A DNA stretch of 45,984 bases from a virus. Made by a program: the position numbers and the translations under genes. The stretch's first letter is position 1. Every line of letters begins with the position of its first letter. The notes below the pieces were generated by a model, which was given only the letters and a program-made list of their open reading frames with translations, did no database searches and was not told the origin of the DNA. Below, in pieces: positions 8,581-42,486 of the stretch. Location of the stretch: IMG/VR virus record IMGVR_UViG_3300009149_010517, positions 1-45,984 of that record. The stretch is one strand, 5' to 3'.

Positions 8581-11500
8581 TTGTTATTTTCCATGATAGC
8601 ATTTGAATTATCAGGAGAAAAAAAGAACGTGAAAAATATTATATCTTATGAAGATGCTTTCAAATCATCTGTTAAGTATTTTCAAGGCAACGACTTATCG
8701 GCAAAAGTATTTTTAGATAAATACGCTTTAAGAGACTCTGAATTAAATATATTAGAAGAAAATGCTGATGATATGCACTGGAGATTGACGGACAATATCT
8801 ACAGAATAGAAAAATATAAATATAAGAATCCAATTCCCAGGAAAACAATCTATAACTATTTAAAGAACTTTGGAAAAATCATTCCTCAAGGCTCTCCAAT
8901 GTATGGCATTGGCAATCCATATCAGTTTGTAACATTATCTAGCTGTTACGTGGTAGAATCTCCTAAAGATAGCTATGCTGGTATTATGCGAACAGACGAA
9001 CAATTAGTTCAAATCAGCAAACGAAGAGGAGGAGCTGGATTAGATATATCTGCATTAAGACCAACAGGTGCTCATACATCCAATGCGGCAAGGACATCGA
9101 CAGGTATTATTTCCTTTATGCAAAGATTTTCTAATACCATAAGAGAAGTAGGACAATCAGGTCGAAGAGGAGCATTATTGATCTCTTTAAGCGTCCATCA
9201 CCCTGAAGTTTTGCGTTTTATTTCTTCAAAAAAAGATCTTACCAAGATTACAGGCGCAAATATTTCTGTTAAACTAACAGATGAATTCTTAAAAGCGGTT
9301 GAAGAAGATACAGAATACGAATTAAGATGGCCTGTTGATTCCAGCAATCCTTCTATTCGTAAAAATATCAAAGCTAAAGAAGTCTGGAATGCTATTATAG
9401 AAAACGCATGGACATCTGCTGAACCAGGACTACTATTTTGGGATAACATTATTAGAGAAAGTCCAGCAGATTGTTATTCTGCTTTTGGATTTAAAACAGA
9501 ATCCACTAACCCATGTATTACTTCTGATATGTGGATTATGACAGATATCGGAGCAAAACAAGTAAAAGAACTTATAGATACGCCGTTTACAGCATTGATT
9601 AATGCTAAAAAGTTTGCTTCTACTGATCAGGGATTTTTCCAAACAGGTATTAAAGAAACATATAAAGTCACTACAAAATCAGGATTTATAGTTAATTGTA
9701 CAAAAAATCATCTTATGAAGCATGCAATACGGACAAAACGTGATTATAAATATAAATGGACCGCTCTTGAAAAACTCAATGTGGGTGATTTATTAGTTTT
9801 AGACGGGATATCGACTAATAATAATTGGGGTGAAACAGGGAACTTTGAAGAAGGATGGCTTGTAGGTAGCTTACTTGGAGATGGTGTTGTTGCTGAAAAT
9901 AGTGCTAAACTTTGTTATTGGGGTAATAACAAGATGAAAATGAAAAAACTTGCTTCTAATTTTATACATAATAACTTTAATGCTAGAGCTGACCTAGGAA
10001 GTGGCAGCGCAACTGCTGTTTATGCAATTCAAAGAGATACAACATCGGTAAAAAGCAAAAAACTATGGGATTTTGCATCTGATTTTATTACAAAAAATAA
10101 AGAAGTTAAAACTGAATTAGAACAAACTAGTAGCGAATTTCATAAAGGCTTTATTTCAGGATTATTTGATGCTGATGGAACAGTGTTATATAGTGATGTT
10201 AAAACAAGCAGATCTATTCGATTAAGCTCTGTTAGTATTAGCAATCTTGAAACAGTTCAAAGAATGTTATTAAGATTAGGAATCATGTCTAGAATCTATA
10301 AAAATCGTAAAGATTCCGGATATCGAGACTTACCAGATGGTAAGGGTGGTTATAAAAAATATTTTTGCAAAGTTAATCACGAACTTGTTATTTCAAAAAA
10401 TAATATCCAAAAATTTTCAACAATTATTGGGTTTAAAGATGAAATAAAACAAGAAAAACTTCAGAAGTCTTTAAATTCACTAACAAAAAGAGGACTATAT
10501 TGTGATTATATGGTTGACCCAATCGAAAGTATTAAAAGCATAGGTGAAAAAGAAGTATATGATTGCACTATAAAACATAGTCATGCTTTCTCTGCAAATG
10601 GAATTATTGTTCATAATTGCAGCGAGCTACCTCTTAGTCCTTTAGATTCGTGTCGCCTATTGGTGCTGAATGCTTATTCCTATGTTAAAAAGCCCTTTAC
10701 TAATGAAGCTTTCTTCGATTTTGAAGAGTTTTATCAAGATGCTATTATTGCTCAACGTTTTATGGACGATATCATAGATTTAGAATTAGAATGTATTAAC
10801 AGAATTATAAACAAAATTATATCCGATCCTGAAGACGAAGATATCAAACGAAATGAATTGAATCTATGGAAAAAAATCAGAACCACTTGTGAAACAGGAA
10901 GAAGAACTGGTACAGGCATTACAGGCGTTGCTGATGCACTAGCCGCATCAAACATTTCTTATGGATCAGAAGAAGGCATTGAAGCAGTAGGCCAAATTTA
11001 TAAGTCTTTAAAATTAGGAGCCTATCGCGGCTCAGTAGAATTAGCTAAAGAACTTGGAGCTTTCCCCGTATTTGATACTGAGCTTGAAAAGGACAATCCA
11101 TTTTTAAATCGGATTAAAGAAGAAGACATAGACCTTTGGAATGATATGCAGAAATATGGCAGACGAAATATAGCATGTCTAACTACCGCCCCAGCAGGTA
11201 GTGTAAGTTTGCTTACACAAACAACATCTGGTATCGAGCCATTATTTAAAATGAGTTATAGCAGACGTAAAAAAATTAATCCTAACGATAAAGAAGCTAG
11301 AGTAGATTTTGTAGATCAGCTAGGAGATGCTTGGCAAGAATTTGATGTCTATCATCCTAAGCTTGCGGATTGGATGGCAGTAACAGGAGAAACAGATATA
11401 CAAAAATCTCCTTGGGCTAACAATTGTGCAAAAGATATCAACTGGGAACATAGAGTTAGACTTCAAGCGATAGCGACTCAGCACATTGACCACTCAATAT

Positions 11501-12228
11501 CTTCAACCATAAACTTGCCTGAATCAGCTTCTAAAGAACTTGTTTCACAAATTTACACCAAAGCGTGGAAAAGTGGTTGTAAAGGAATGACAGTTTATCG
11601 TGCCAATTCGAGAACAGGCGTCATGATTGACACAAAAGATAAAGCTAAAAAAGAAAAACCAGAAGAAGATTGCATTGATTGCAAAAGACCAACAAGAGCT
11701 AGCAGCGAAACCGGATCTATTAAAAAAACTCATGCGATTAAAAGGCCAAAAGAACTGCCAAGTCATATCTATCATGTAAAAGTTAAAGGAGAAGCCTATT
11801 TTGTTGTTGTTGGATTATTAGCTAATGAACCTTATGAGGTTTTTGCTGGCAAAAATGGGCACATCCAAAAAGGGAAATATGGTATTACGGCTAAAATCAA
11901 ACGAGGAAAATATCTTCTATTTTCTAAAAATGGAGAATCAATAGAATCATTGGCAGAGCATTCAACAGAAGAGGAAGAAGCTTTGACTAGAATGATATCT
12001 ATCTCTTTGAGGCATGGCGCTGATATCTCTTTTGTAGTTCATCAACTTGAAAAAATCGATGGAGACCTACAAAGCCTTTCTAAGGCTATTGCCCGAACAT
12101 TAAAGAGATATATAGTTGATGGGACAAAAGTGTCAGGAGAGACTTGTATGGAATGCAAAATGAACAGCTTGGTGAGAGAACAAGGCTGTGTCATATGTCA
12201 AAATTGCGGATGGACAAAATGTTCTTAA
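8581..12228 (+). CDS. nrdJ: class II (B12-dependent) ribonucleotide reductase with intein
   Basis: The precursor has 1215 codons; removal of a 368-residue intein leaves about 847. It reduces ribonucleotides to deoxyribonucleotides using adenosylcobalamin. The frame shows LSSCYVV (redox Cys near residue 122), RGGAGLDIS, the active-site N-P-C-S-E motif split by the intein, PAGSVSLLTQTTSGIEPLF, and CKGMTVYRANSR, which is typical of NrdJ. A C-terminal zinc-ribbon-like Cys cluster (CMEC, CQNCGWTKC) follows. The start is uncertain. TTG 8581 lies 16 bases from AGGAGG (8559-8564), ATG 8593 is further away, and GTG 8629 has AGGAG (8613-8617) at a good spacing and gives a family-like N-terminus. dUTPase follows, forming a dNTP-supply unit. 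Confidence 0.95.
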   Translation: MLFSMIAFELSGEKKNVKNIISYEDAFKSSVKYFQGNDLSAKVFLDKYALRDSELNILEENADDMHWRLTDNIYRIEKYKYKNPIPRKTIYNYLKNFGKIIPQGSPMYGIGNPYQFVTLSSCYVVESPKDSYAGIMRTDEQLVQISKRRGGAGLDISALRPTGAHTSNAARTSTGIISFMQRFSNTIREVGQSGRRGALLISLSVHHPEVLRFISSKKDLTKITGANISVKLTDEFLKAVEEDTEYELRWPVDSSNPSIRKNIKAKEVWNAIIENAWTSAEPGLLFWDNIIRESPADCYSAFGFKTESTNPCITSDMWIMTDIGAKQVKELIDTPFTALINAKKFASTDQGFFQTGIKETYKVTTKSGFIVNCTKNHLMKHAIRTKRDYKYKWTALEKLNVGDLLVLDGISTNNNWGETGNFEEGWLVGSLLGDGVVAENSAKLCYWGNNKMKMKKLASNFIHNNFNARADLGSGSATAVYAIQRDTTSVKSKKLWDFASDFITKNKEVKTELEQTSSEFHKGFISGLFDADGTVLYSDVKTSRSIRLSSVSISNLETVQRMLLRLGIMSRIYKNRKDSGYRDLPDGKGGYKKYFCKVNHELVISKNNIQKFSTIIGFKDEIKQEKLQKSLNSLTKRGLYCDYMVDPIESIKSIGEKEVYDCTIKHSHAFSANGIIVHNCSELPLSPLDSCRLLVLNAYSYVKKPFTNEAFFDFEEFYQDAIIAQRFMDDIIDLELECINRIINKIISDPEDEDIKRNELNLWKKIRTTCETGRRTGTGITGVADALAASNISYGSEEGIEAVGQIYKSLKLGAYRGSVELAKELGAFPVFDTELEKDNPFLNRIKEEDIDLWNDMQKYGRRNIACLTTAPAGSVSLLTQTTSGIEPLFKMSYSRRKKINPNDKEARVDFVDQLGDAWQEFDVYHPKLADWMAVTGETDIQKSPWANNCAKDINWEHRVRLQAIATQHIDHSISSTINLPESASKELVSQIYTKAWKSGCKGMTVYRANSRTGVMIDTKDKAKKEKPEEDCIDCKRPTRASSETGSIKKTHAIKRPKELPSHIYHVKVKGEAYFVVVGLLANEPYEVFAGKNGHIQKGKYGITAKIKRGKYLLFSKNGESIESLAEHSTEEEEALTRMISISLRHGADISFVVHQLEKIDGDLQSLSKAIARTLKRYIVDGTKVSGETCMECKMNSLVREQGCVICQNCGWTKCS
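9514..10617 (+). mobile_element. intein with LAGLIDADG homing endonuclease, inside the reductase
   Basis: A 368-residue in-frame insertion starts with Cys (CITSDMWIMTD) and ends with VHN, and the next residue is Cys. Splicing motifs are visible: block B T-K-N-H, block F VYDCTIKHSHAFSANG, and the terminal HN. Two endonuclease motifs, VGSLLGDGVV and SGLFDADGTV, mark a homing endonuclease. The insertion lies between TNP and CSELPL, so the +1 cysteine is the reductase's thiyl-radical cysteine. The element both splices itself out and could copy itself into intein-less alleles. Confidence 0.93.
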
Positions 12229-26755: not shown

Positions 26756-29476
26756 ATGGCGATAAGTATTAATCAAAATAAAGAAGCCTTGGATAGAAAA
26801 AGACGCCTTGTTGCGACATCATTAACAGAGACACCTGGTTCTCAAAATATCCATGATAATGCAAGACAATATTCTAACAGCTCTAGAGTAAATATTCCTA
26901 TTACTAAAGCTGCTCAATTTGCAGGATCAGCTGCAAATACAATACACACTCAGCCAATGTTCTTTAGCCCTTTACACACGCCTCAGAACTGGCAAATCGC
27001 AAGCAAAAAGAGAGAAATTTATCAATGGTCAAGATTTTATTATGAAAATGATCCTAAAGTAGCTGCTGGCATAGATTTTTATTGTTTCCCTCCTACTTCT
27101 CAAGTTTTAATGGCAGATGGAGAACAAAAATCTATTAGCACAATTAAAAAAGGCGATTTAGTTAGGAGTCATGACGGCAGTTGTAATCAAGTTGAAGAAA
27201 TTCATAAAAGAAAAGCAGATGAAAATCTATTTCATATTAAAATTGCTGGAATTAAGAATGGAACATTAAAAACTACAGCTGGCCACAAAATATTAGTTGA
27301 CAGGAATGGGGATGTCAATTGGATACAAGTTTGGGAATTAAAAAAAGGAGATTATTTATTAACTCCAATTAATTATGAAGCTAATTTTAGCAATAAAAAT
27401 TTCATTAAAAGAAAAGTTTTAAATATAAAAACACAACAATATAAAGGTGATGTATATGATCTAACAATTAACGATACTCATACTTATGTTGTTAATAGAG
27501 TTGCAGTCCACAATTCGGAATTTCCAATTAATGGATTCAAGCTTGAGTGTAAAAATAAAACAATTTTAAAATATTTTGAGAAATTAGTTAAAGATTTAAA
27601 ACTAAACCATTGGATAAAAGCCATTAGTCATGAATACTTCTTGTTAGGAGATGTTTATCCTTTTCTAGAGATAGATTGTCCAGAATGTCATGGTTCTGGT
27701 GTCTTGCCTGATGGCGAAGTTTGTAACCACCCAGGTGGAAAATTTAGAAGATTGGTTGTATTAAATCCAGATTGGATTGAAGTACAAAAAAACGTTTTAG
27801 CTAGCGAACCTGTTATTTCTTTGGTTCCTGATGAAGAATTAAGAATGATCGTTAGTAGACAAGAACCAAAACAAATCTTTAATAGATTGCCTTCAAGATT
27901 AGTAGATATGGTTATGGCAGGATCTCCTATTCCTCTTTCTAATAGATGTGCTAGTCATATTGCCAAAAACGCTAGTCCTTATGGGGCATATGGAACATCA
28001 TTAATTCGTAGACTATTTACTACGTTAGCTTATAAGACTAAATTAATAACAGCTAATTGGATTGTGGCAGAACGACTTATTATACCGATTAGAGTTGTTA
28101 AAGTTGGAGAAGAAAAGAGACCAGCAACTGCTGATGACATTCAAGATGTTTCAGATCAATTAGCCGCAGTCGCTAATGATCCTAATGTAACTATAGTAAC
28201 TCACCATGCTTTTGATCTTGAATGGTACGGAGCTTCTGGCAAGATACACAATATTACAGCAGAATTAGAGCAAATTGGCAAAGAGATGCTTGATGGTTTG
28301 ATGCTCAATCAAAGCTTACTCAACGGCGAAATGAGCAGTTACAGTTCTGCACAAGTTGGTGTTGAAACGATGATTAGACGACTTGAAGGATGGAGAATTA
28401 AATTAGCTGATTGGATTGAAGATCATATCTTTTTACCAACAGCTATGATGCAGGGATTCGTTGATCAAGAAGATAGTGAAGAAATGAATGAAACCATATA
28501 TCTTTATCCCGAAGTTAAATGGAATGATTTAAACTTAAGAGATAACTCTAATGAATTGCAGTTACTAATGCAGTTACACGATAAAGGGCTTATTTCTTCT
28601 CAAAAATTATTAGAAGAATTTGATATTAATTATGATCAAGAAACCAGAAGATTAAGAGACGAAAAATTATTAGTTGGACCAGGTGGAGCTATAGGAGGAG
28701 GCGGTATGCCAATGCCTATGGGAGGCGGTATGCCAATGCCTGGTGGTGATATGGGAGGCGGTATGCCAATGCCTGGTGGTGATATGGGAGGCGGCATGCC
28801 TGGTGGTGATATGGGAGGCGGTATGCCAATGCCTGGTGGCGATATGGGAGGCGGCATGCCTGTCGGTGCATTAGCTGGTGCTGGTGGAGATCCACAAATA
28901 AATTCTAATTTAAAAATTGGTAAAAGAGGCAAAGGCGGCAAAAGTCTTACGGAACAAACTCAAATGCCTGCTCCAACATTTATAAAATTAACTAATTTAG
29001 AAAGTAAAATGTATAAAGTTTTAAGCTTATTAGACGCTCCATATCAACTATATGGACAATATCAAGTAAAAATGGCGGGTGAACAACAACCTTTTGTTTT
29101 AGATTTTGCATATCCTCAAATAGGAGTTGCTATTGAAACAGATGGAGCGATGTGGCACGAAAGACTTGATCTTAAAACAAAAGATCAAAGCAGGGATCAA
29201 AAGTTAGCTAATGTTGGTTGGCGCATTTTAAGATTTAAAGAAGATGCTTTAAATAATAATATTAATGACATTCAAAACATTATACATCAAAACATTATAG
29301 AAGCTGCTGAAGAAAAGAAACAAAGAACAAAAAAAAGTAAAACAAATGATGTTTTGCTCAAAATTGCTTCTTTAGATAGTTTATTAGAAAAAGATAATGT
29401 TATTGTCAAAAAACAAGTATTACCTAATGATTTAGGTTATATATGGTTAATTGGATCTGGAGAAAATAATGGATAA
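26756..29476 (+). CDS. portal protein with mini-intein and C-terminal DUF559/Vsr-like domain
   Basis: The precursor has 906 residues; removing a 144-residue intein (110-253) leaves 762. The portal forms the dodecameric ring through which DNA enters and leaves the head. Portal signs are YYENDPKVAAGIDFY joined to SEFPINGF after splicing, the segment near LLGDVYPFLEIDC, an ASPYGTSLIRR-like stretch, and SQVGVETMIRRLEG-like helices near the clip and crown. A Gly/Met/Pro-rich spacer (about 645-705) leads to residues 743-855. That end resembles DUF559/Vsr-like PD-(D/E)xK nucleases: FVLDFAYP, AIETDGAMWH, and DQKLANVGWRILRF. Whether this domain cuts DNA is unknown. Confidence 0.88.
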   Translation: MAISINQNKEALDRKRRLVATSLTETPGSQNIHDNARQYSNSSRVNIPITKAAQFAGSAANTIHTQPMFFSPLHTPQNWQIASKKREIYQWSRFYYENDPKVAAGIDFYCFPPTSQVLMADGEQKSISTIKKGDLVRSHDGSCNQVEEIHKRKADENLFHIKIAGIKNGTLKTTAGHKILVDRNGDVNWIQVWELKKGDYLLTPINYEANFSNKNFIKRKVLNIKTQQYKGDVYDLTINDTHTYVVNRVAVHNSEFPINGFKLECKNKTILKYFEKLVKDLKLNHWIKAISHEYFLLGDVYPFLEIDCPECHGSGVLPDGEVCNHPGGKFRRLVVLNPDWIEVQKNVLASEPVISLVPDEELRMIVSRQEPKQIFNRLPSRLVDMVMAGSPIPLSNRCASHIAKNASPYGAYGTSLIRRLFTTLAYKTKLITANWIVAERLIIPIRVVKVGEEKRPATADDIQDVSDQLAAVANDPNVTIVTHHAFDLEWYGASGKIHNITAELEQIGKEMLDGLMLNQSLLNGEMSSYSSAQVGVETMIRRLEGWRIKLADWIEDHIFLPTAMMQGFVDQEDSEEMNETIYLYPEVKWNDLNLRDNSNELQLLMQLHDKGLISSQKLLEEFDINYDQETRRLRDEKLLVGPGGAIGGGGMPMPMGGGMPMPGGDMGGGMPMPGGDMGGGMPGGDMGGGMPMPGGDMGGGMPVGALAGAGGDPQINSNLKIGKRGKGGKSLTEQTQMPAPTFIKLTNLESKMYKVLSLLDAPYQLYGQYQVKMAGEQQPFVLDFAYPQIGVAIETDGAMWHERLDLKTKDQSRDQKLANVGWRILRFKEDALNNNINDIQNIIHQNIIEAAEEKKQRTKKSKTNDVLLKIASLDSLLEKDNVIVKKQVLPNDLGYIWLIGSGENNG
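27083..27514 (+). mobile_element. mini-intein in the portal protein
   Basis: A 144-residue insertion starts with Cys (CFPPTSQVLMADGEQK) and ends with VAVHN before Ser. Block B is TAGH and block F is VYDLTINDTHTYVVN. No endonuclease domain is present, so this is a splicing-only remnant that cannot home by itself. Joining the flanks gives GIDFY-SEFPINGF, a normal portal sequence. Confidence 0.9.
28695..28862 (+). repeat. Gly/Met/Pro tandem repeats in the portal gene
   Basis: Repeated units of about 33 bp, plus shorter ones, encode GGGMPMPGGDM. They make a flexible linker between the portal body and the nuclease-like domain. An open - strand Pro/Ile-rich frame over the same bases is an artefact of the repeat. 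Confidence 0.8.
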
Positions 29477-30729: not shown

Positions 30730-33700
30730 ATGTCATTTAACAAAAAAGCAGGTCAACAGAAAACTTTGATAGAAGCACTAAATGTGCCTAATTGGAATGA
30801 ATATAATTTAAAAATTGTAAAAACAGCATCAATAGAAAAATCTGATGATTTAAATGGGTTTGATATTGCATCAGCTGTTAAAAAATATCCAGAACATTTG
30901 TTTGTTAAAGTATTTGCTATTAAGAAAGATGAAATTAATGATAATGGAGATGCTTTTTCTGAAAAAGAGCTTAAAAAAGCATATTCTTCTTTTATTGGTG
31001 TCCCAATTTTTTGTAATCACCAAAATTCAGATATAGAAAAAGCTCGCGGGAATGTAGTTCATTCTTGGTACGATAATAAAAAAGGTGGAATTTTTATTGT
31101 AGCAAGAGTAGACAGAGTCGCATATCCAGATTTAGTAAGAGGAATTGAGCAAGGCTATGTAAATGGGACCAGTATGGGAGCTATGTCTGGAGATTCTGAG
31201 ATTACAATGTCTGATTTTTCAAAAAAGAAAATATCAGACATTAGAGTTGAAGAAGAAGTTATTTCTCATTTAGGAAATAAATGCAAAGTAAAAGAAATAC
31301 ATAGTGATTATTTAGGAACTCCTCTAATAAAGTTTGATTTAGGCAACATAACCGAAAGCCCTTTATTTACCTTTGACCATCCTATTTTATCTATTCGTAA
31401 AAGCGAAATTTTAGAACAACGAAAAATAAATCCTAAAAATTGGCGTAATGTTCCATATGATTGTATTTTTAGAGAAGCTAAAAACTTATTTTTAGAAGAT
31501 TTTTTACTTATTCCATCTAGATACAAATTAACACAAGATAATCAATTTGATTTAGATTTTTATTATTTACTAGGAGCCTTTACTGGTGATGGTTATATCA
31601 AATTCAACAAAGGAAAAATAGAAGGATTTGGTTTTTGTTTTGGAAAAAATGAAATTAATTTAATTGAAAAGATTAAAAATATTTTATCTAAATTTACTAC
31701 ATATTCAATTAATGAAAATATTATTGATGCTCGCAACGGAAATTACATTACCATTTATGATAGAAAATTAGCTAAAAAAATAGATAATATTATTGGACAT
31801 GGAGCTCATTCAAAAAGAATTAATTTACAAAGCATTAGCAAAGAAGCAATTAAAGAATTTTTAGCAGGATATATTGATACCGATGGCTGCATGGTTAAAG
31901 ATTATACTAGTTGTAAAAATGATGTTAGAGGTTTCCAGATATCTAGTTGTAATAAAAAATTGCTTGAAGACATTCGTTCTATGTTAATTTTATTAGATTG
32001 TCCTTCAGGAATCCAAACTAATATTAGAGAACCTAATAAAAATAGCCTTGTTGATATAAAAACAATTGAACATACATTATTTATTAATTTATTTACTTCT
32101 TCAAGAATTTTTAATTCTATAAAAGTTGCTAAACATCTAGATGGATATACAGCTTCTTATAGTAATACCCATAATTTTATATTTGAAATTGAAAATAAAA
32201 AATATATTGCTTGTAGAATTAAAGGAATAGATTTAATTGATAATTTTGAAGAAGAAGTTTATGATTTAACAATTGAAAAAGATGCTAGTTATATTGCAAA
32301 TAGTTTAGCTGTTCATAATTGCAGCGTCGAAGCAAGTTGCTGCTCAATTTGTCACCATTGTGCTGCTACAGCAGATGAATATTGTGAACATGTTAGAGAT
32401 CGCAAAAACAAGAAATTTAGTGGAGCCATAACTTGTCAATATCACAATAGCAGTACTAAAGCAGAAGGCTACGAAGATAAATGTCCTATTTGTGGATGCA
32501 CAAAAGAAGAAGCTAATGAATTAACACACAAAGAAGCTCAAATATATGAAAACAATTATGGAATTAAATTTATAGAAGATAGCTTTGTTGTTAATCCAGC
32601 TTGTCATGATTGTTTGGTACAAGAAATACTTAATAAACAAGGTATGTCTGAAAAAATAGCTGATATATCTAAAAAAATAAATTCTCTATCAAAAGTAGCT
32701 TGCTCTACAGGTTCATGCAATATAAATAAAGTAGCGGGGAAAACAGAAATAGAAGATCTTAAAGAAGCTATGAATAAAATTGAACGAGTTGCTCAAAGTA
32801 TGATGCAACAAAAACAACATATTTCTATGGAATATGTAAGTGATCTAGTTGATGCTTTAGCAAATGTTCAATCAATTACAGACGAACTTGTTGAAATGGG
32901 ATATTCTCAATTACCTTCTCCTAATGTAGTAGGAGGAGTTCAAACAATTACTGATGAGTCGGCAATAACTAATCCACAACAACAACCACAACTACAACCA
33001 CAACCACAACAATCTTCTTTATCTACTCCTTCACTTGTTAATCAAGATCTAGATGGATTAGGATCTGTAACAAAACCTAAATATTCTTCAAAAAAAGAAG
33101 AAAAAAAAGAGGAGTTTAAAGTAGCTATCCATAACTTAATAAAAGAATTACATACAACTTCAGCAGGGTTAGAAAAAGAAGCCCTAAATAATATCTCTGA
33201 AAAGGAGCCATTTAATATGGAAAACGTTAAAACTAGTCAAGGTGATTCATTGCTTGACAAAACAGCAGAACAACAAGATGTAATTACTGAAAAACAACTT
33301 GAAAACGCTTCTGGAGCTGGTGAAAGACAACATGAAGATTTGAACATTATTACAGAAAAACAACTTGATTCTCCAAGAGATGTGAATCAAACGACTAGTG
33401 TTTCACCTCAAAAACGATCCGAGTCTTTTGATGTTATCACAGAAAAGCAACTTGATAATGTTACTAGCGGTATTGTTGCTCGTTGGGGAGATTTTCCAGA
33501 AGTAATTACAGAAAAACAATGGACAGAAACCAGTAGACGAATTGGCTCTGTTTTAAGCTGTGATCAAGATAATGTAATAACAGAAAAACAATTACAAAAT
33601 TTCCTTTCTCATTCAGGATATACTGAACCAGATGTTATTACTGAAAAGCAGTTAGAAGGCAGCAACACAGATCAAAACAAAAGAGCATCTTCAGTAAAAG

Positions 33701-36531
33701 ATATGGTCAAAGCTGCTGAGTTAGCTATCGCTGATTGTATTTCGTGTTTCGGGAAAACTCCTAAAGAAATTCAAAAAGCTGCTTCTTCTTTTACAGATAA
33801 CCCTAAGAATTATGACAAAGCAGCTTATATGCTTTTGATTAACTCGTTCCCTCATAAGCTTGACGACAGAAAAGCAAAGAAAGAAAAGTATACTTATCTT
33901 TCCAAATTAGCTTCTGAAGCGATTGAAGGACCCAATTCTAAAGATTCTTTAATTATCAGTATGAGCGATAATCTCAGCGGCATGAAAGCTGAAAACATGA
34001 TTGATGCTGTTAATTATGTTTTAAGCGACAAACAAGCCATGAGCCAAGTAGAATCTATGGTTAAAGAAAAAATGTCATCTAAAGAAGAAGATAGCACTGT
34101 ATTGAGCAAGAAAGCTCAATTTGAAAGTGCTGTTAAAGAACTTGATCGTCCAGAAGATGGCATATATCAAATTCATGCTGCATTGAGCGAGATTAATGCA
34201 GATCCTAAAAAACAAAATTTATTTATTCAAGAAGTTCAAAAATATGCAAGCAATTTAATCAATGATGATACGGTAAAGGTTGTTATTACAAATATTGATT
34301 TAGATAGCAAACAAGATATTGTTATAGCAACAGCTAAAGATGCTTCATTTTTATCAAATGAAGAAAGAGAATCATTAGCTTTGATGGAACAAAAAGAAAA
34401 AGAAAACGAACAAGAAAACCTTGAAGAAACTGAAATAGAGCGTTTAAAAAGACGACAAGGATTAGGAGCAAGAGCTTCAAGAAAAGCTATGAGACAATCC
34501 TTAGTTAAAGAAGCACAGTTGGCTGGCGGAGAAATGGGCGGACAAGGCGGACTTTCACAAGCTCCTGGCGCAGGCGCAAGCTTACCACAACCTCCTGCTA
34601 ATGCTTTAGGTGAAGCTCCTGTAGAAAGTTTTGAACAATCAGATATGGTAGATGTAGATGTTGATGCTGAAAATGCTGCACCTAAGCCTCCAGGCGCAAT
34701 GTGCGTTGTATGCGGTTCTAATGATGTAGATATCATTAAAGGCGAAGGTAAATGTAACAACTGCGGTTCTGAAATGCAGTTTAAAGTCAATATTACTGTA
34801 ACAAAATGGGCAGATTTCCTTGAAGACAATGTAGATGAAGAAGAAGAAGTAAATGAAGTATTAGAAGGTGAAGGATTTGAAATGCCAACAGATGGAGAAT
34901 TAGCAACAGCATCTGTCAAATCAAAAATGACAAAGAAAGCTAGCATTAAAGAAGCTACTATAAAATTTGCGACAATGATTAAACTTAATTCTAAAGCAAT
35001 GAAGCAAGCAGAAAAAGAAGGCATAGCAATTGGATCAGTTAGTCCAATTACAGGATCTACAGATACTGTTAATCTTGGAAATGGAAAAAGAGCTTGTCTT
35101 GATAGCGGAATAGAATATCAAGTTCTTTATGCTGTTCGCAAAGATAAACCTGAAGAAGTTTATGCTGAATGGCGATGGGAAACTAAGAAAAATGCAGAAT
35201 GCACATCTTGTAGCAGAATGAAACAAGCTTTTGTTAAGGCTTTAAGCGATATCGGGGTTACAGAAGAGCAATTTGATAATTCAGATTTAAAAACAAAAGC
35301 TGATCATATTCTTCATATGAAAAAAGCTGGAACTTTACAAACAATTAAAACAGCCAGTAAAAAAGCTGGATCTGTTATTGATGAATACAAGCAAGTATTT
35401 GCTTCTCAGTTCGGAGATAAATTCCCAATTGAATCTTGTCGTGAACGATTGGCAAGACGATATGGATTAAACGCTCTTGCTTTAAGCGGACCTTGCGAAG
35501 GAAAACCTTTATATGATTGCGTATGCAATTCTCTAAAGAAAGCTGATGTTTATTCAAGTAAATTAGCTATAAAAGTTGCTGAAGTTTGGAGCGACAAAAA
35601 CGCTTCTTCAGAATGCTTAGAAGACTATATTAGAATGGGATATGGTCTCAAAGAAGCATCATGCATTTGTGAAGCAATGAAAATGAAATATGCACAATTT
35701 GAAGATGAATTTACAGAAGAATTAGAAGAAACAATTGAAGATAATGTAGATCAAGTAGATGACGTTGAAATGGAAGATACTGGAATGGAAGACGTAGATC
35801 CATTTGAAGACATTAATGATGACACAGTAACAATTGAACTTCCAAAAGAAACCGCTAAAGAACTTGAAGAAGTTTTAGATGTGGTTTTAGGAGAAGACGT
35901 TGAAGGTGTTGAAGGCGTTGAAGGTGTTGAAGGAGTTGAAGACGTTGAAGACGTTGAAGACGTAGCAGATGAAGATGTTGAAGCTGTTATAGATGTTGAT
36001 GTTGATACTCCTGCTTTTGATGGTGATGTAACAGATGAAGGCGTAGAAGACGAAACAGATGGAATATCTACCAATGACGAAGAAGTCAAAGACTTAAGAG
36101 GACAAGGTCAAGGACATGGTAAAGGACTTGGACTTGGACTTGGGCTTGGACTTGAAAATCCTGAAGAAGCTGTAGAAGTAGAATTTGCAGAAGTTCCAGA
36201 AGAAGGCGAAGTGTGTCCTTTAACAGAAGAAGTCGAAGAATGTCCTTTAATAGAAGAAGGCGAAGAAGCGATGGGAACTGTTGATGACATTAAAGAAGAT
36301 ATCATAGAAGATATTGCTGAAAAAGTTGTTGAAAAACTTCAAGAAAAAGAAGGAATTGAAATAGAAGATGTTGAAACAGAAGAAGTTGGAGATGAAATAG
36401 TAGATGAAAATGAAGAATTTAAAGAAGGACAAGATGAATGGAATGATGACGAACAAGGAGAGATTGGAACAGCATTAACAGCTAGCGAAGAGGAAAAGTT
36501 TGTGAAAGAATCTAATAAAATGAAACATTGA
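30730..36531 (+). CDS. giant prohead-protease-like head protein with intein and ITEKQ repeats
   Basis: This 1933-codon gene is the largest in the window. Residues 1-150 resemble the phage prohead protease type of the S78 group, with NENGD-like NDNGDAFSEKEL, His97 in FCNHQ and Ser148 in GTSMG. An intein (151-530) follows. After it come Cys-rich knuckles (CCSICHHCA, CPICGCTKEE). Residues 850-975 carry six VITEKQ repeats. Further on are a zinc ribbon (CVVCGSNDV, CNNCG), more Cys-containing helical parts, and a very acidic tail with VEGVEG and GLGLGL runs. It ends at TGA, but the frame stays open beyond. It may be a protease plus scaffold polyprotein. Confidence 0.75.
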   Translation: MSFNKKAGQQKTLIEALNVPNWNEYNLKIVKTASIEKSDDLNGFDIASAVKKYPEHLFVKVFAIKKDEINDNGDAFSEKELKKAYSSFIGVPIFCNHQNSDIEKARGNVVHSWYDNKKGGIFIVARVDRVAYPDLVRGIEQGYVNGTSMGAMSGDSEITMSDFSKKKISDIRVEEEVISHLGNKCKVKEIHSDYLGTPLIKFDLGNITESPLFTFDHPILSIRKSEILEQRKINPKNWRNVPYDCIFREAKNLFLEDFLLIPSRYKLTQDNQFDLDFYYLLGAFTGDGYIKFNKGKIEGFGFCFGKNEINLIEKIKNILSKFTTYSINENIIDARNGNYITIYDRKLAKKIDNIIGHGAHSKRINLQSISKEAIKEFLAGYIDTDGCMVKDYTSCKNDVRGFQISSCNKKLLEDIRSMLILLDCPSGIQTNIREPNKNSLVDIKTIEHTLFINLFTSSRIFNSIKVAKHLDGYTASYSNTHNFIFEIENKKYIACRIKGIDLIDNFEEEVYDLTIEKDASYIANSLAVHNCSVEASCCSICHHCAATADEYCEHVRDRKNKKFSGAITCQYHNSSTKAEGYEDKCPICGCTKEEANELTHKEAQIYENNYGIKFIEDSFVVNPACHDCLVQEILNKQGMSEKIADISKKINSLSKVACSTGSCNINKVAGKTEIEDLKEAMNKIERVAQSMMQQKQHISMEYVSDLVDALANVQSITDELVEMGYSQLPSPNVVGGVQTITDESAITNPQQQPQLQPQPQQSSLSTPSLVNQDLDGLGSVTKPKYSSKKEEKKEEFKVAIHNLIKELHTTSAGLEKEALNNISEKEPFNMENVKTSQGDSLLDKTAEQQDVITEKQLENASGAGERQHEDLNIITEKQLDSPRDVNQTTSVSPQKRSESFDVITEKQLDNVTSGIVARWGDFPEVITEKQWTETSRRIGSVLSCDQDNVITEKQLQNFLSHSGYTEPDVITEKQLEGSNTDQNKRASSVKDMVKAAELAIADCISCFGKTPKEIQKAASSFTDNPKNYDKAAYMLLINSFPHKLDDRKAKKEKYTYLSKLASEAIEGPNSKDSLIISMSDNLSGMKAENMIDAVNYVLSDKQAMSQVESMVKEKMSSKEEDSTVLSKKAQFESAVKELDRPEDGIYQIHAALSEINADPKKQNLFIQEVQKYASNLINDDTVKVVITNIDLDSKQDIVIATAKDASFLSNEERESLALMEQKEKENEQENLEETEIERLKRRQGLGARASRKAMRQSLVKEAQLAGGEMGGQGGLSQAPGAGASLPQPPANALGEAPVESFEQSDMVDVDVDAENAAPKPPGAMCVVCGSNDVDIIKGEGKCNNCGSEMQFKVNITVTKWADFLEDNVDEEEEVNEVLEGEGFEMPTDGELATASVKSKMTKKASIKEATIKFATMIKLNSKAMKQAEKEGIAIGSVSPITGSTDTVNLGNGKRACLDSGIEYQVLYAVRKDKPEEVYAEWRWETKKNAECTSCSRMKQAFVKALSDIGVTEEQFDNSDLKTKADHILHMKKAGTLQTIKTASKKAGSVIDEYKQVFASQFGDKFPIESCRERLARRYGLNALALSGPCEGKPLYDCVCNSLKKADVYSSKLAIKVAEVWSDKNASSECLEDYIRMGYGLKEASCICEAMKMKYAQFEDEFTEELEETIEDNVDQVDDVEMEDTGMEDVDPFEDINDDTVTIELPKETAKELEEVLDVVLGEDVEGVEGVEGVEGVEDVEDVEDVADEDVEAVIDVDVDTPAFDGDVTDEGVEDETDGISTNDEEVKDLRGQGQGHGKGLGLGLGLGLENPEEAVEVEFAEVPEEGEVCPLTEEVEECPLIEEGEEAMGTVDDIKEDIIEDIAEKVVEKLQEKEGIEIEDVETEEVGDEIVDENEEFKEGQDEWNDDEQGEIGTALTASEEEKFVKESNKMKH
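31180..32319 (+). mobile_element. Ala1 intein with LAGLIDADG endonuclease, in the protease-like gene
   Basis: A 380-residue in-frame insertion begins with Ala (AMSGDSEITMSDF), not Cys or Ser, and ends with LAVHN before Cys. Block B is TFDH and block F is VYDLTIEKDASYIANS. Two endonuclease motifs, LGAFTGDGYI and LAGYIDTDGCM, are present. Extein residues GTSMG-CSVEASC rejoin cleanly. Ala at position 1 with Cys +1 is the class 2 pattern. Block F has Asp, not Cys, at its fourth position, so it is not class 3. Confidence 0.85.
33277..33657 (+). repeat. six VITEKQ repeats in the giant head protein
   Basis: Six units of (D/N/E)-V/I-I-T-E-K-Q-L/W begin at 33277, 33343, 33430, 33499, 33571 and 33631. 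They are 20-29 residues apart, with variable DNA between them. The motif is conserved while the spacers are not, which is unlike simple slippage repeats and points to selection on the motif. Confidence 0.85.
35905..35966 (+). repeat. tandem repeat encoding VEG/VED units
   Basis: A run of GTTGAAGG-type 9-bp units encodes VEGVEGVEG then VEDVED in the acidic tail of the giant head protein. A 6-bp GGACTT repeat follows at about 36126-36151. Both stay in frame and could vary in copy number. Confidence 0.75.
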
Positions 36532-36738
36532 TATATAGGCAGAACAGGTGAAATTGGTTTAGATCTTGATTCTGTATTAAGTGTTTTAAATAAAACAGCT
36601 GGCGAAAAAGACATTACTCAACAAAATGCTCAAGATTCTCCTGATATAGGAAAAATTCAAGATAATAAAACAATAGGAGATGAAGACAAGTTCTCAGACG
36701 GTGTAGATTCTCCTGAAATTAATTCTGGTAAAGCGACA

Positions 36739-37647
36739 ATGGGAAAAGAAGAAACAGATGCAAATCCTGACAAAGCACCTAAGATCAAAATTCCTGTTGG
36801 CAGCAAGCCTATGGGCCACGAAAAAGAACAAGGTCTTGAAGGCGGCGACAATAGATATACAGGTGGCGACGGAGGACAAGGTAAGGCATCTCATTCAACA
36901 AGAGAACAGATATCTAACTTAGCTGACCGTATCATTGAAGCTCAAGAAAAAAAAGTTGTAAGAAAACCTCCACAAGATGATGAAGATGTTAAGCCTTATT
37001 CTGCTGGAGATCAAAGTTTTCTAGGCGATGAAAAAGCAAGTATTGGATCTGTTCCTAAAGCAGACCCTAAACCAGGAACAATTCCTGCAACAGGAAATGG
37101 TTTTTTGGGAGATGAAAAAGCAAGTATTGGCGAACAGCCAACTGACAAAGATACTCCATCAATTCCTGTAAAAGATGAAAGAATTGATGGCGAAAAAGAT
37201 AATAAAGAAATTGCCCCTGAAAAAGAAGAGAATGTAACGGGGCTTCGCGGTGCTAACGCTAGTAGCGAAAAAGAGCCAAAAGACAATGCAAATGAAGCGA
37301 TAAGAATTGCAGGAAGAATGTTAGCTAATCATATGATTACAGCTAATAGTCTTTCTCAAAAAATCGCAGAATTGCAAAGTTATAAAATTCATCAACTACA
37401 TGATCTTGAAAAAGGCATGTTTGTTGAGAAAAAAGGACTCGCTGCATCGTCAGACGGGATTGAACAACCCGTAATTATAGGACAAGCAAGTAGCGACAAG
37501 GAAGCTCAAAATCGTAATAACATTACGATCAAAGAAGCTCAAAGCGAATTGACAAATAAGCTTCAAAGCATATTTAGTCTTGATAAACAAAATGTTCAAG
37601 CCGAACAAGATAATAATGCTGAACTTCGTAAAGTCTTTAATAGATAA
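36739..37647 (+). CDS. continuation of the giant head protein after an in-frame TGA
   Basis: The region from 36532 to 37647 is open in the same frame as the giant protein. The first ATG is at 36739 (302 residues), with no good SD. The sequence between the TGA (36529-36531) and that ATG reads as coding, with segments such as GLDLDSVLSVLNKTA, and it carries the first copy of a repeat (SGKATMGKEE / GSKPMGHEKE / FLGDEKASIG) that continues past the ATG. The C-terminal half (residues 190-302) is helical with ELQSYKIHQLHDLEKGMF. So the natural protein may be a readthrough or nonsense-interrupted fusion. Confidence 0.7.
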   Translation: MGKEETDANPDKAPKIKIPVGSKPMGHEKEQGLEGGDNRYTGGDGGQGKASHSTREQISNLADRIIEAQEKKVVRKPPQDDEDVKPYSAGDQSFLGDEKASIGSVPKADPKPGTIPATGNGFLGDEKASIGEQPTDKDTPSIPVKDERIDGEKDNKEIAPEKEENVTGLRGANASSEKEPKDNANEAIRIAGRMLANHMITANSLSQKIAELQSYKIHQLHDLEKGMFVEKKGLAASSDGIEQPVIIGQASSDKEAQNRNNITIKEAQSELTNKLQSIFSLDKQNVQAEQDNNAELRKVFNR

Positions 37648-37674: not shown

Positions 37675-38244
37675 ATGGCTTTAATTGAATTGTATCATGT
37701 TGTTGCAGACTTTTACCCAGTAGATCCTGACTGGAGTACTGCAATCGTGGAAGGTATGGTAGTCGATCTTTCTGCTACTGGATTTGTTGCTGGAGCTACT
37801 GGCGCAGCAGCCGAAAGAGCTATCGGTCTTGCCGCTGATACCCTTGCGTCAACACCCCCAACCGCTGCCGCTCATCCTCATACCCCTTATTCAGCCGCAG
37901 TAACGATCAATGCTGCTGGAAGCACCCAATGGACACAGAATCGTGTTTCAGATGCGTTTAATGAAACACTGGCATCTGGGCAAATGACAGTCTACCATAG
38001 TGGTGGCAAATTTGCTTCAACTGAATATGAAGTTTTAACAGGTGCTGTGCCTATTACCTATGCAGTTGGTAATCCTCTGTATGTAAGCGCTAATTCAAGA
38101 CTTACTAACGTTGCTTCTACTAGCGCTCAAGTTATAGGAACAGTAGTTGTTGCTCCTTCCGCTTATCCAAGTGGAGTTCCTGGTACAGCTGTAACTGGTT
38201 CAACTTCCTTGGGCACTTATATCCAGTTTAAACTGGAAATCTAA
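37675..38244 (+). CDS. putative capsid decoration/head protein
   Basis: The 189-residue protein has AAGGAG a few bases before its ATG. It is rich in Ala, Gly, Thr and Val with few charges, fitting a beta-structured virion protein. Its GC content and codon use (more GCC, CGT, ACC) are higher than its neighbours, similar to the capsid gene, as for an abundant protein. It lies directly upstream of the major capsid gene, the usual place for a decoration or head-stabilising protein. Identity is inferred from position and composition. Confidence 0.65.
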   Translation: MALIELYHVVADFYPVDPDWSTAIVEGMVVDLSATGFVAGATGAAAERAIGLAADTLASTPPTAAAHPHTPYSAAVTINAAGSTQWTQNRVSDAFNETLASGQMTVYHSGGKFASTEYEVLTGAVPITYAVGNPLYVSANSRLTNVASTSAQVIGTVVVAPSAYPSGVPGTAVTGSTSLGTYIQFKLEI

Positions 38245-38333: not shown

Positions 38334-39203
38334 ATGTCTATGACTAAAAATCTTACCGATGCCGAAAAGCAAGAAGTTATTGCTCAAGCTTTACAAACAG
38401 ACGAAGGAAGAACCGCTTTAGCGCAAGCTATGGTTGAGCCTATTCGTCGTTCGTTAGAGTATCAGGCCGTTGGTCGTAAGCTTTTGATGGTTGACGAACT
38501 TCCTCAAGGTGCCCTTGCACGATACGAACGAGATGTTGCGTCTATCGCTCATGTCGTTAGTCGTAGAGGCGCTGTTCCAGATCAGATCCAAGAAGGCGAA
38601 GAAATTCTTGTTCCTACTTTTGAAATCGCTGCGAACCCAACTGTTCGTTTGTCTGAAATCAAAGCTCGCAGATTCTACATTGTAGACCGCGCGCAAATCA
38701 AGGCTAAAGAAGCTATTCAGAAAGAAGAAGATACAAATATCTTTAACGCTCTGATTGCTGCTGCTAATACCCTTGGTACACAAGTAGTAACAAACGTTGG
38801 TTCTTTAAGCACTGCTTCTTTGAACACTGCTTATAGACTAATTGAGCAGCATGATCTTGTTTGCACAAAAGTTGTTATGCAAGCAAACCGTTTTGCTGAT
38901 ATTCGTTTGTTTGGTAAAGATTTCTATGACGAAGCAACCCAAAGAGAAATCATCACCACAGGTCTTTATGGACACCTTTGGACGGCAGATCTCCACGTTA
39001 GCTCAAGAATGGCAACAGATACTGTTCTGTTAGTTGCCTCTCCTGATACCGTTGGAGCTTTCCCAATCCGACAAGATATTTCCGTATTGCCTGCTGATGA
39101 TCCTAAGAAACTTAGGCTCGGTTGGGTTATCTACGAAGAAGTGGGTATAGTCGTGATTAACGATTATGCTGTATCAACGATTGAAGTAACAGAAGCTACT
39201 TAA
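38334..39203 (+). CDS. major capsid protein (HK97-like)
   Basis: The 289-residue protein forms the head shell. An AAGGAG lies upstream of the ATG. The N-arm is helical (LTDAEKQEVIAQALQTDEGR), and the core shows ELPQGALARYERDV, FEIAANPTVRLSEIKARRFY and LGWVIYEEVGIVVINDYAVSTIEV, as in HK97-fold capsids of large phages. Codon use is richer in G+C than the rest of the window, as expected for high expression. A strong terminator follows 27 bases later. The protein is short for an HK97-type capsid but complete. Confidence 0.85.
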   Translation: MSMTKNLTDAEKQEVIAQALQTDEGRTALAQAMVEPIRRSLEYQAVGRKLLMVDELPQGALARYERDVASIAHVVSRRGAVPDQIQEGEEILVPTFEIAANPTVRLSEIKARRFYIVDRAQIKAKEAIQKEEDTNIFNALIAAANTLGTQVVTNVGSLSTASLNTAYRLIEQHDLVCTKVVMQANRFADIRLFGKDFYDEATQREIITTGLYGHLWTADLHVSSRMATDTVLLVASPDTVGAFPIRQDISVLPADDPKKLRLGWVIYEEVGIVVINDYAVSTIEVTEAT

Positions 39204-39265: not shown

Positions 39266-39357
39266 ATTCTTTCTTGTCGTCATTGCCATTGAGGGAGAAA
39301 TTTATTAGTAATTAACTATATATTTACTAGCAAGTGTGTCTATATAATAATTATAAT

Positions 39358-42300
39358 ATGTTTATTATGAAAAATAAAATAAACTATACTACAATATTAA
39401 ATAAATCTTTTTTTGAAAAATATTATAATCAAAAGCGAATGTCTTTTCCTGCTATAAACAAAATGTTAACAAATAAAGGATATAATATTGCAACAGGTAC
39501 TATATACAAATATGCTAAACAATTGGGTTATGGAAGAACTATTGCAGATGCAACAAGTGATCTTGATTATAATGATTCTTTTTTGACCTCAGATATTCTT
39601 GCTGCTCTTGATGGATTTATATTAGGAGACGGATCCATTAGTATAACTCTTGGCAAAAATTATAATGTTGGCAGATTGGCGTGTGGCTTAGAACACAAAG
39701 AATTTGCAGATTTTCTAATGAGTTATTTTGCCCCTTACCTAGCTAGTGTATCTATGTATAAAGATAGTCATATGAAAAATGGAATTAGATATGATGGGAG
39801 AACGCTTGCTCATCCTGATCTTTATCAGCAATATTTAAGATGGTATCCTCAAAATGATCAAAATGGACAAAAAAGCAAACAACCTCCTGATGATGTTGTT
39901 ATTAACAAAACATCTGTTTTGCTTTGGTATTTAGGAGATGGGAGTGCCGTCCAGAGCGATAATTCTATTTCTATAAGATTATCTACAGATTCATTTTTGC
40001 CAGAAAAAGTTATATTTTTAGCAAACAAGTTAAAAGAAAAAGATATTTATTGTCATCGCAATAATGATAATAGAATTTATATAGAAGCAAAAGGGATACC
40101 TGCATTTTTTGATTTAATTGGGATGCAGTCTCCTATAAAATGTTATGATTATAAATTTCAACTACCTGAATGGAGATTTGAATCAAAAAGAATGAGAGAT
40201 GTCGCGGAAGAATTAAACATAGAGTATCATCAATTAAGTTATTTAGTAAAATCAGGACGTATTCCATGCCATAGAGCTTCAGAAAAAGGAAGACCAAGAT
40301 TTTTAACTGAACATGTTTCTATTTTAAAAACATATATTTCAGAAAATACAATAAAAATAAAACCCTATTGTCCGCTTGTTTTTAAAAACGAGAAAAACCC
40401 CTCTAATGGTCAAGAAAGAAAAATACACAATTATTGTTCTGAAATTTTAAAAGAACAAACAATAGAAGAATATGGTTATAACCCAGATCAACTTGGTCGA
40501 ACTTCATCTAAATTTGTTATAGCTATATGTAGATTTTGTGGTAAAGAGATGCCTATAAGAAAAGGGTTTTTTAATAAAGCAGGTTCTGCTTGCCATAAAG
40601 AATGTAGAATACAAGAACAAAAGATTAAAGGTTCTCCATTTCTAGATGTTAAAGTAAGAGAAAAAGCTCAAGAAACTAATTTAAAAAGATATGGAACTAA
40701 ACAAGCAAGTCAAAATAAAGATATTGCTAAAAAAATATCTAAAACTAAACTTACTGATGATAGTAAAAATAAATCCAAAGAAACTAACTTAGAAAAGTAT
40801 GGAGTTAAAAACGTTTTTCAATCAGAAGAAATAAAGCAAAAAATAGAAGAAACTAATATAAAAAAGTATGGAGTAAAAAGTCCTATACAAAACGAAGACA
40901 TAAAAAATAAAATAAAACAAACTAATTTAGAAAGATATGGCGTTGAAAATCCCTTACAATCAAATGTAATACGTGATAAAACAAAAAAGACTAATTTAGA
41001 AAAATATGGTGCTGAAAATCCGCAACAAAACACACACATAAGAGATAAAACAGTTAAATCGTGGAAACAAAATATCTTTTCTGGCAATAATGACAATTAT
41101 AAACTTATTAATATTTTAAAAGGAAAGCCCTTTTGGGATAAGTTAGAAACCGGCATAACGTTAAAAAATATTTGTAAAGAATATGATATTAATTATCAAA
41201 GCACAACAGCTGCTCTTCTTCGTCCTGAATTTAAAGAAAAATATTATTCTGTTTATTCTTTTCCTAAGCAGCAAAAACAAAAAGAAATTTTTGATTGGTT
41301 GAAAGCAAATGGTTCTAATGTTCTTTTTAATGATAGAACAGCTATTGCTCCTTTAGAGCTAGATATTTATGATCCTAAAAATAAAGTGGCAATAGAATTT
41401 AATGGAAGCTATTGGCACTCTGAAGCCTTTCTAGATAGAGATATCGCTAAAAATAAGCACGCAACAAAAACAAGATTATGTCAAGAAAAAGGAATACGTC
41501 TTATTCATGTTTTTGAACATACTTATCTTGAAAAAGAAGAACAGTTTAAAAATTTTCTCAAATCTGCTTTTGGTTTAAACAAAAACAAAATAGCTGCAAG
41601 GAAATGTTCTATTACTAACAGAGATTCAAGTGTTTTTTTAGAGAAATACCATATTCAAGGGAAGCCAATAAAAGTAATTAAATATTTTAATTTAGAATAT
41701 AACAATGAAATTATAGGTTGTATGACAGCGGGTCTCCACCATGAAAGGGGAGGCGATAGAACTGCTTGTGTCTTGTCTAGATTAGCCTTTAAGAGCGATA
41801 CAACAGTACAGGGGGGTAGTTCTAAGTTATTTAAATACTTTGTCACATGGGCAAAGGAGAACGAATATTCAACTATAATATCATGGTCAGATAATTGTAT
41901 TTCTGAAGGAAAAGTATATAATATTCTTAAGTTTCATTTAGAAAAAGAATATGATAAAAGTTATTTTTATTTTGATATTATTAATAAAAAATATTGCACA
42001 AAGCAATCTCAAAGAAAAACAAATAAAGAACGACCTGAAGGAATGACTATTGTTGATTGGAATAATTCTAGAGGAGTTTATGCAATTTGGGATTGCGGAA
42101 AGAAAAAATGGACGTACAATATTAATAAAAGCCAACATTATCAACAAAAAGAAATTATCGATTTAACTAATATATTACAAGAAAATCTTTCTTTTGATCT
42201 TATAAAAAAACAACATAAAGGAATTACACCTATACATGGAGCTTGTTATATCGCTTCAGAAGCTTTATACCACCTGCTAAAAGAAAATTATCAATTGACT

Positions 42301-42486
42301 ATTAAACGATATAAAATAGATCAAATAACTCATTGGTGGTTAGAGTGCAATGGAGCAATAATAGATCCGACAAAAGAACAGTTTGATTTCGATTATCCTT
42401 ATTGTTTCGGCAAAAAATGTAATTTTCTTACTAAAGAGCCTTCAAAAAGATGTAAAATATTACTAGAAAGAATGAAAAAATATTAA
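39358..42486 (+). CDS. mosaic homing endonuclease with C-terminal Cys-His-Asp domain
   Basis: This 1042-residue free-standing protein joins several nuclease and accessory parts. There is a LAGLIDADG pair (LDGFILGDGSI near residue 85, LLWYLGDGSAV near 189) and an HTH-like piece near 280. About five repeats of the TNLERYGVENP type (DUF7487-like) follow at 438-563. A Vsr-like PD-(D/E)xK domain comes next (LDIYDPKNKVAIEFNGSYWH, near 675), then a GNAT-like part (745-890). The C-terminus (955-1028) carries a possible C963/H992/D1003 triad, as in transglutaminase/cysteine-protease folds. I chose ATG 39358; a GTG at 39334 is in frame, and neither has a good SD. It sits directly after the capsid terminator. 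Confidence 0.8.
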   Translation: MFIMKNKINYTTILNKSFFEKYYNQKRMSFPAINKMLTNKGYNIATGTIYKYAKQLGYGRTIADATSDLDYNDSFLTSDILAALDGFILGDGSISITLGKNYNVGRLACGLEHKEFADFLMSYFAPYLASVSMYKDSHMKNGIRYDGRTLAHPDLYQQYLRWYPQNDQNGQKSKQPPDDVVINKTSVLLWYLGDGSAVQSDNSISIRLSTDSFLPEKVIFLANKLKEKDIYCHRNNDNRIYIEAKGIPAFFDLIGMQSPIKCYDYKFQLPEWRFESKRMRDVAEELNIEYHQLSYLVKSGRIPCHRASEKGRPRFLTEHVSILKTYISENTIKIKPYCPLVFKNEKNPSNGQERKIHNYCSEILKEQTIEEYGYNPDQLGRTSSKFVIAICRFCGKEMPIRKGFFNKAGSACHKECRIQEQKIKGSPFLDVKVREKAQETNLKRYGTKQASQNKDIAKKISKTKLTDDSKNKSKETNLEKYGVKNVFQSEEIKQKIEETNIKKYGVKSPIQNEDIKNKIKQTNLERYGVENPLQSNVIRDKTKKTNLEKYGAENPQQNTHIRDKTVKSWKQNIFSGNNDNYKLINILKGKPFWDKLETGITLKNICKEYDINYQSTTAALLRPEFKEKYYSVYSFPKQQKQKEIFDWLKANGSNVLFNDRTAIAPLELDIYDPKNKVAIEFNGSYWHSEAFLDRDIAKNKHATKTRLCQEKGIRLIHVFEHTYLEKEEQFKNFLKSAFGLNKNKIAARKCSITNRDSSVFLEKYHIQGKPIKVIKYFNLEYNNEIIGCMTAGLHHERGGDRTACVLSRLAFKSDTTVQGGSSKLFKYFVTWAKENEYSTIISWSDNCISEGKVYNILKFHLEKEYDKSYFYFDIINKKYCTKQSQRKTNKERPEGMTIVDWNNSRGVYAIWDCGKKKWTYNINKSQHYQQKEIIDLTNILQENLSFDLIKKQHKGITPIHGACYIASEALYHLLKENYQLTIKRYKIDQITHWWLECNGAIIDPTKEQFDFDYPYCFGKKCNFLTKEPSKRCKILLERMKKY

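What the first reader, a model, noticed from the sequence alone, without database searches (positions are those of the whole stretch)
36520..36760. One in-frame TGA splits a 1933-codon head protein from a 372-codon continuation
The frame of the giant protein is open from 30730 to 37647 except for a single TGA at 36529-36531. The region after the TGA reads as coding, and a repeat family (GKATMGKEE, GSKPMGHEKE, FLGDEKASIG) runs across the only nearby ATG (36739), which has no good SD. This suggests translational readthrough, a recent nonsense mutation, or a sequence error. A phage tRNA-Trp(CCA) is encoded nearby, and Trp tRNAs can misread UGA, so regulated readthrough giving two protein lengths is possible. 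TGA is used as a normal stop by other genes here, so it is not a general code change.
Basis: partly seen in the sequence, partly recalled or inferred. Interest (0 to 1): 0.75.

Follow-up and report, generated by a model that had tools for sequence, protein, structure and literature searches.

The report
Private stop codon in phage head gene
A single stop codon interrupts a very long head-assembly gene in this uncultured giant-phage contig, but about 57 related phages read straight through the same spot with an ordinary amino acid, so it is most likely a recent mutation or a sequence error, not a deliberate two-product switch.

Summary
In detail: frame 30730-37647 is open except for TGA at 36529-36531. 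The gene lies between portal and major capsid genes in a contig whose capsid protein is 52% identical to that of Bacillus phage G. It encodes a head-maturation protease fused to a long, largely disordered scaffold-like region, with an intein in the protease. I collected 80 related loci through the capsid gene. In every relative that covers the site, the parts before and after the TGA form one open frame. At the TGA column, 57 relatives carry Gly (39), Ser (12) or another residue, and none carries a stop. The closest ones carry GGA, one base change from TGA. The part after the stop keeps all 34 strongly conserved residues. The first start codon after the TGA lacks an SD and would delete a conserved block. 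There is no sign of programmed readthrough: the stop is not conserved, no structure follows it, and the tRNA-Trp has an ordinary CCA anticodon. Three relatives carry private frameshifts elsewhere in the same gene, so one-off breaks are not rare in these assemblies. Verdict: a recent nonsense variant or a base error in the assembly, inseparable without reads. Low interest.

The parts
30730..36531 (+). Upstream part of the giant head gene (1933 aa): head-maturation protease domain, intein, long scaffold-like region with ITEKQL repeats, ending at the TGA
31180..32322 (+). Intein (about residues 151-531) with LAGLIDADG endonuclease motifs, inserted directly after the protease GTSMG motif; begins with Ala, followed by Cys+1
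   Evidence: exact ends inferred by comparison with intein-free L002
36529..36531 (+). In-frame TGA; relatives have Gly (39), Ser (12) or other residues (6) at this column, never a stop
36532..37647 (+). Downstream part of the same gene (371 codons + TAA): conserved block at its start, short repeats, C-terminal helical region
36739..36741 (+). First in-frame start codon after the TGA; no SD; would delete the conserved (Y/R)IGxTGEIxLDLSxV block
37675..38244 (+). Next head gene, by synteny the counterpart of phage G gp26 (capsid decoration), strong SD
38334..39203 (+). Major head (capsid) protein, 52% identical to Bacillus phage G gp27; used to collect relatives

Best explanation
The giant gene is a single ORF in this phage group (protease plus scaffold-like protein, mostly about 1800-2050 aa without an intein and 2200-2480 aa with one). 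In this contig a single base change has turned a conserved glycine codon into TGA. It is either a very recent nonsense mutation in the sampled population or a base error in a metagenomic assembly. If it is a real mutation with no suppression, the product would end at residue 1933 and lack the conserved C-terminal 371 residues, including the predicted helical end. That would probably block head assembly, which makes an error or a minority defective genome the likeliest source. Shown: the stop, its absence in relatives, the conservation of the downstream part. Inferred: the ancestral glycine and the consequence for assembly.
For: In relatives the upstream and downstream parts share one open frame. 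The aligned column holds Gly 39, Ser 12, Asn 2, Lys 2, His 1, Arg 1 and no stop; near relatives (L002, L006, L007, L009, L010) have GGA. The alignment with these is gap-free around the codon. The part after the TGA has no further stop, 0 deviations at 34 columns conserved at 90% or more, and 4 of 65 at 75% or more (rank 22 of 49). Codon-position differences from L002 have the coding pattern, much the same before and after the stop. Private frame changes occur elsewhere in the same gene in L020, L069 and L081, so isolated breaks are not unusual in these assembled contigs.
Against: Reads are not available, so error and mutation cannot be separated and some suppression cannot be excluded. The three other private breaks are frameshifts, not nonsense codons. 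A relative-rate test on the downstream part gives mixed results: the window is faster than L002 against L006, L007, L009, L010, L025 and L004, but not against L015, L018, L040, L041 or L054.
Confidence: 0.86

Rival explanations
1. Functional UGA readthrough: ribosomes sometimes insert an amino acid at the UGA, giving a short (1933 aa) and a long (2305 aa) form of the scaffold.
For: The downstream part is fully conserved and in frame, and a tRNA-Trp is encoded on the contig.
Against: The stop is in no relative, and the site is mostly Gly or Ser, never Trp. No downstream structure beyond chance (z = +0.86). The tRNA-Trp has a plain CCA anticodon. Relatives manage with the long form alone.
Confidence: 0.07
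2. Gene split in two: the downstream part is now translated from its own start.
For: An ORF of 302 aa begins at ATG 36739. In a relative subgroup (L048, L049, L060) the protease is in a separate frame from the rest, so this gene can be split, though at another place.
Against: No SD at 36739 while neighbouring genes have AAGGAG. The 69 codons before it include a conserved block. No relative splits here.
Confidence: 0.05
3. The host or phage reads TGA as glycine (code 25, as in Gracilibacteria), so the protein is full length.
For: The column is Gly in most relatives. TGA is a rare stop here, and the two other TGA-ended genes would gain only 5 and 10 residues if TGA were read through. Phages compatible with both codes have been described (PMC10746230).
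Against: About 700 Gly codons in the listed genes are GGN and only this one site would be TGA; clearly code-25 phages are dense in in-frame TGA (PMC10746230). No tRNA-Gly(UCA) among the seven tRNAs. The nearest isolated relative by capsid protein infects Bacillus.
Confidence: 0.02

Closest known systems
Giant protease-scaffold gene of related uncultured phages (e.g. L002, IMGVR_UViG_3300035698_014118)
   Same: Same place between portal and decoration/capsid genes, 52-68% identical before and 57% after the TGA site
   Different: No stop: one 2010-aa ORF with GGA at the site; no intein in L002
Bacillus phage G head region (gp14 portal, gp19, gp26 decoration, gp27 major capsid)
   Same: Capsid protein 52% identical; gp19 matches the protease domain (E 4e-39)
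   Different: In phage G the protease is a separate 300-aa protein; no match to the downstream part was found
UGA readthrough in phages (e.g. Q-beta coat protein A1, from memory) and stop-recoded phages
   Same: An in-frame TGA followed by coding sequence
   Different: Those stops are conserved or occur genome-wide; here there is one private stop

Membership tests
Programmed stop-codon readthrough | Stop codon conserved at the same place in relatives | tested here: not met
   0 of 57 relatives
Programmed stop-codon readthrough | Downstream extension in frame and under selection | tested here: met
   0 of 34 strongly conserved columns changed; equally expected of a recent mutation or error
Programmed stop-codon readthrough | Stimulating structure after the stop | tested here: not met
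   Folding of the 100 nt after the stop is no better than shuffles, z = +0.86
Programmed stop-codon readthrough | Extended protein detected | not testable with these tools
   Needs mass spectrometry
Stop-recoded phage (code 4 or 25) | Many in-frame TGA codons across genes | tested here: not met
   The listed genes have intact frames; this is the only TGA-interrupted one recognised
Stop-recoded phage (code 4 or 25) | Suppressor tRNA (UCA anticodon) | tested here: inconclusive
   Seven tRNAs, none with UCA; the contig is only part of the genome
Private nonsense mutation or sequence error | Relatives carry a sense codon one base away in an otherwise intact frame | tested here: met
   13 relatives with GGA, including L002, L006, L007, L009 and L010
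Private nonsense mutation or sequence error | Reads show a sense codon or a mixture (error, minority variant) or uniform TGA (fixed mutation) | not testable with these tools
   No reads; an exact-pattern scan for another copy of this locus in viral contigs found none

The most novel reading that the evidence does not exclude
The UGA is fixed in this phage and is read at a set rate, giving two lengths of the scaffold protein: a recently evolved readthrough switch in a giant-phage head gene.
Probability: 0.05. Interest if true: 0.5.

Novelty: already known. Interest (0 to 1): 0.1.

Why it matters
It matters mainly for annotation: the two ORFs (1933 and 302 aa) should be treated as one interrupted gene, not as two proteins or as a recoding case. 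It also shows that a lone in-frame stop in a metagenomic contig can be judged by aligning the site in relatives. If readthrough were real it would be a new control point on scaffold length, but nothing here points to that.

Tried and rejected
Direct searches for relatives of the two parts in viral contigs found none, probably because the protein has few conserved stretches; the capsid protein opened the family instead. The phages collection has no match to the downstream part. An exact DNA pattern around the TGA found no second copy of this phage. Relatives of the two other TGA-ended genes, sought to test whether those TGAs are true stops, were not found. The structure model of the downstream part is poor overall (pTM 0.23) apart from C-terminal helices, so no fold search was made. 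A relative-rate test was mixed and is not used as evidence for relaxed selection. Literature searches gave no report of readthrough in this gene; they were few and limited to open-access papers.

Full report
Observation. The frame 30730-37647 is open except for TGA at 36529-36531: 1933 codons before it and 371 after it, up to TAA. The gene sits between a portal gene (26756-29476) and two head genes, 37675-38244 and the major head protein 38334-39203. The window is a 45,984-base linear virus record. The capsid protein is 52% identical to Bacillus phage G gp27, so the contig belongs to the wider phage G group of giant phages (inference from that one protein and the gene order).

What the gene is. 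Residues about 46-171 match a family (phrog_2774) and a head-maturation protease family (phrog_18299), and phage G gp19 (profile E 4e-39). Residues about 151-531 are an intein with LAGLIDADG motifs. The rest is a long low-complexity, scaffold-like region with ITEKQL repeats, also seen in many relatives; calling it a scaffold is inference from its place and make-up. In phage G the protease is a separate protein, and in a subgroup of relatives (L048, L049, L060) it is separate too. In the window's own group the two are fused.

The comparison that decides. Eighty loci were collected by the capsid protein. Sixty-four of them contain a match to the part after the TGA. Wherever the contig covers the site, that part lies in an open frame that continues upstream through it. 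Most give one ORF of about 1800-2050 aa, or about 2200-2480 aa with an intein, ending shortly before the decoration gene. In the alignment the TGA column holds Gly in 39, Ser in 12, Asn 2, Lys 2, His 1 and Arg 1 of 57 relatives, and a stop in none. Near relatives have GGA, one base from TGA. So the stop is private to this contig and arose at a conserved position by what looks like one base change.

The part after the stop. A conserved block spans the site (roughly M-K/R-K/R-G-x-I/V-G-x-T/V-G-x-x-x-L/M-D-L-S-x-V), followed by short repeats (ATMGxE, GHExE) and a C-terminal helical region. In the window it has no further stop, 0 changes at 34 columns conserved at 90% or more, and 4 of 65 at 75% or more, in the middle of the range for intact relatives. 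The pattern of differences from L002 by codon position is much the same before and after the stop. It has therefore been translated until very recently, or still is, or the TGA is not real.

Alternatives. Programmed readthrough predicts a conserved stop; there is none. The 100 bases after the stop fold no better than shuffles. The tRNA-Trp is an ordinary CCA tRNA, and the residue in relatives is not Trp. A restart at 36739 lacks an SD and would delete the conserved block, and no relative splits the gene here. A code change to TGA = Gly would suit the residue, but it would be the only such codon beside about 700 GGN codons in the listed genes. Phages that clearly use code 25 are dense in in-frame TGA (PMC10746230), and no UCA tRNA is present on the contig.

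Base rate. Three other loci of the collection carry private frame changes elsewhere in this gene: L020 inside its intein, and L069 and L081 in the scaffold region. One-off breaks of this very long gene are thus not rare in assembled metagenomic contigs, and the window's stop is one more.

Verdict. A recent nonsense variant or a base error; reads would separate them.

Noticed in passing
31180-32322 (residues about 151-531 of the giant protein): The intein in the head protease begins with Ala instead of Cys or Ser (GTSMG|AMSGDSEI...VHN|CSVEA). Relatives L009, L010, L018, L031 and L054 have Ala-start inteins at the same site, L003, L007, L032 and L038 Cys-start ones there, and L022, L030, L036 and L041 Cys-start ones a few residues upstream. 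A recurrent Ala-1 intein with Cys+1 next to the protease GTSMG motif resembles class 2 (KlbA-type) inteins, from memory.
   Followed up: partly
26756-29476: The portal gene carries a small intein-like Hint insertion (residues about 112-253) and a DUF559/endonuclease-like stretch near its C-terminus (residues about 770-860); L035 and L058 align through that stretch too.
   Followed up: no
8581-12228: The ribonucleotide reductase large subunit ORF of 1215 aa appears to hold a large internal insertion (profile matches at residues 40-248 and 690-1214, with endonuclease-, helicase- and primase-family matches between), probably another intein.
   Followed up: no
39334-42486: A 1050-aa ORF directly after the capsid gene joins LAGLIDADG_2, DUF7487/homing-endonuclease and acetyltransferase-like matches; some relatives encode parts of it in separate frames.
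   Followed up: no
33250-33850 (giant protein, residues about 850-1030): Repeats of (D/N)VITEKQ(L/W), six or more in the window and up to six in relatives; they may be short binding or cleavage motifs of the scaffold.
   Followed up: partly
L048, L049, L050, L060, L012: In this subgroup the protease part and the scaffold part of the giant gene are in different frames or separated by stops near the same place (query residues 785-850), suggesting separate genes there.
   Followed up: partly
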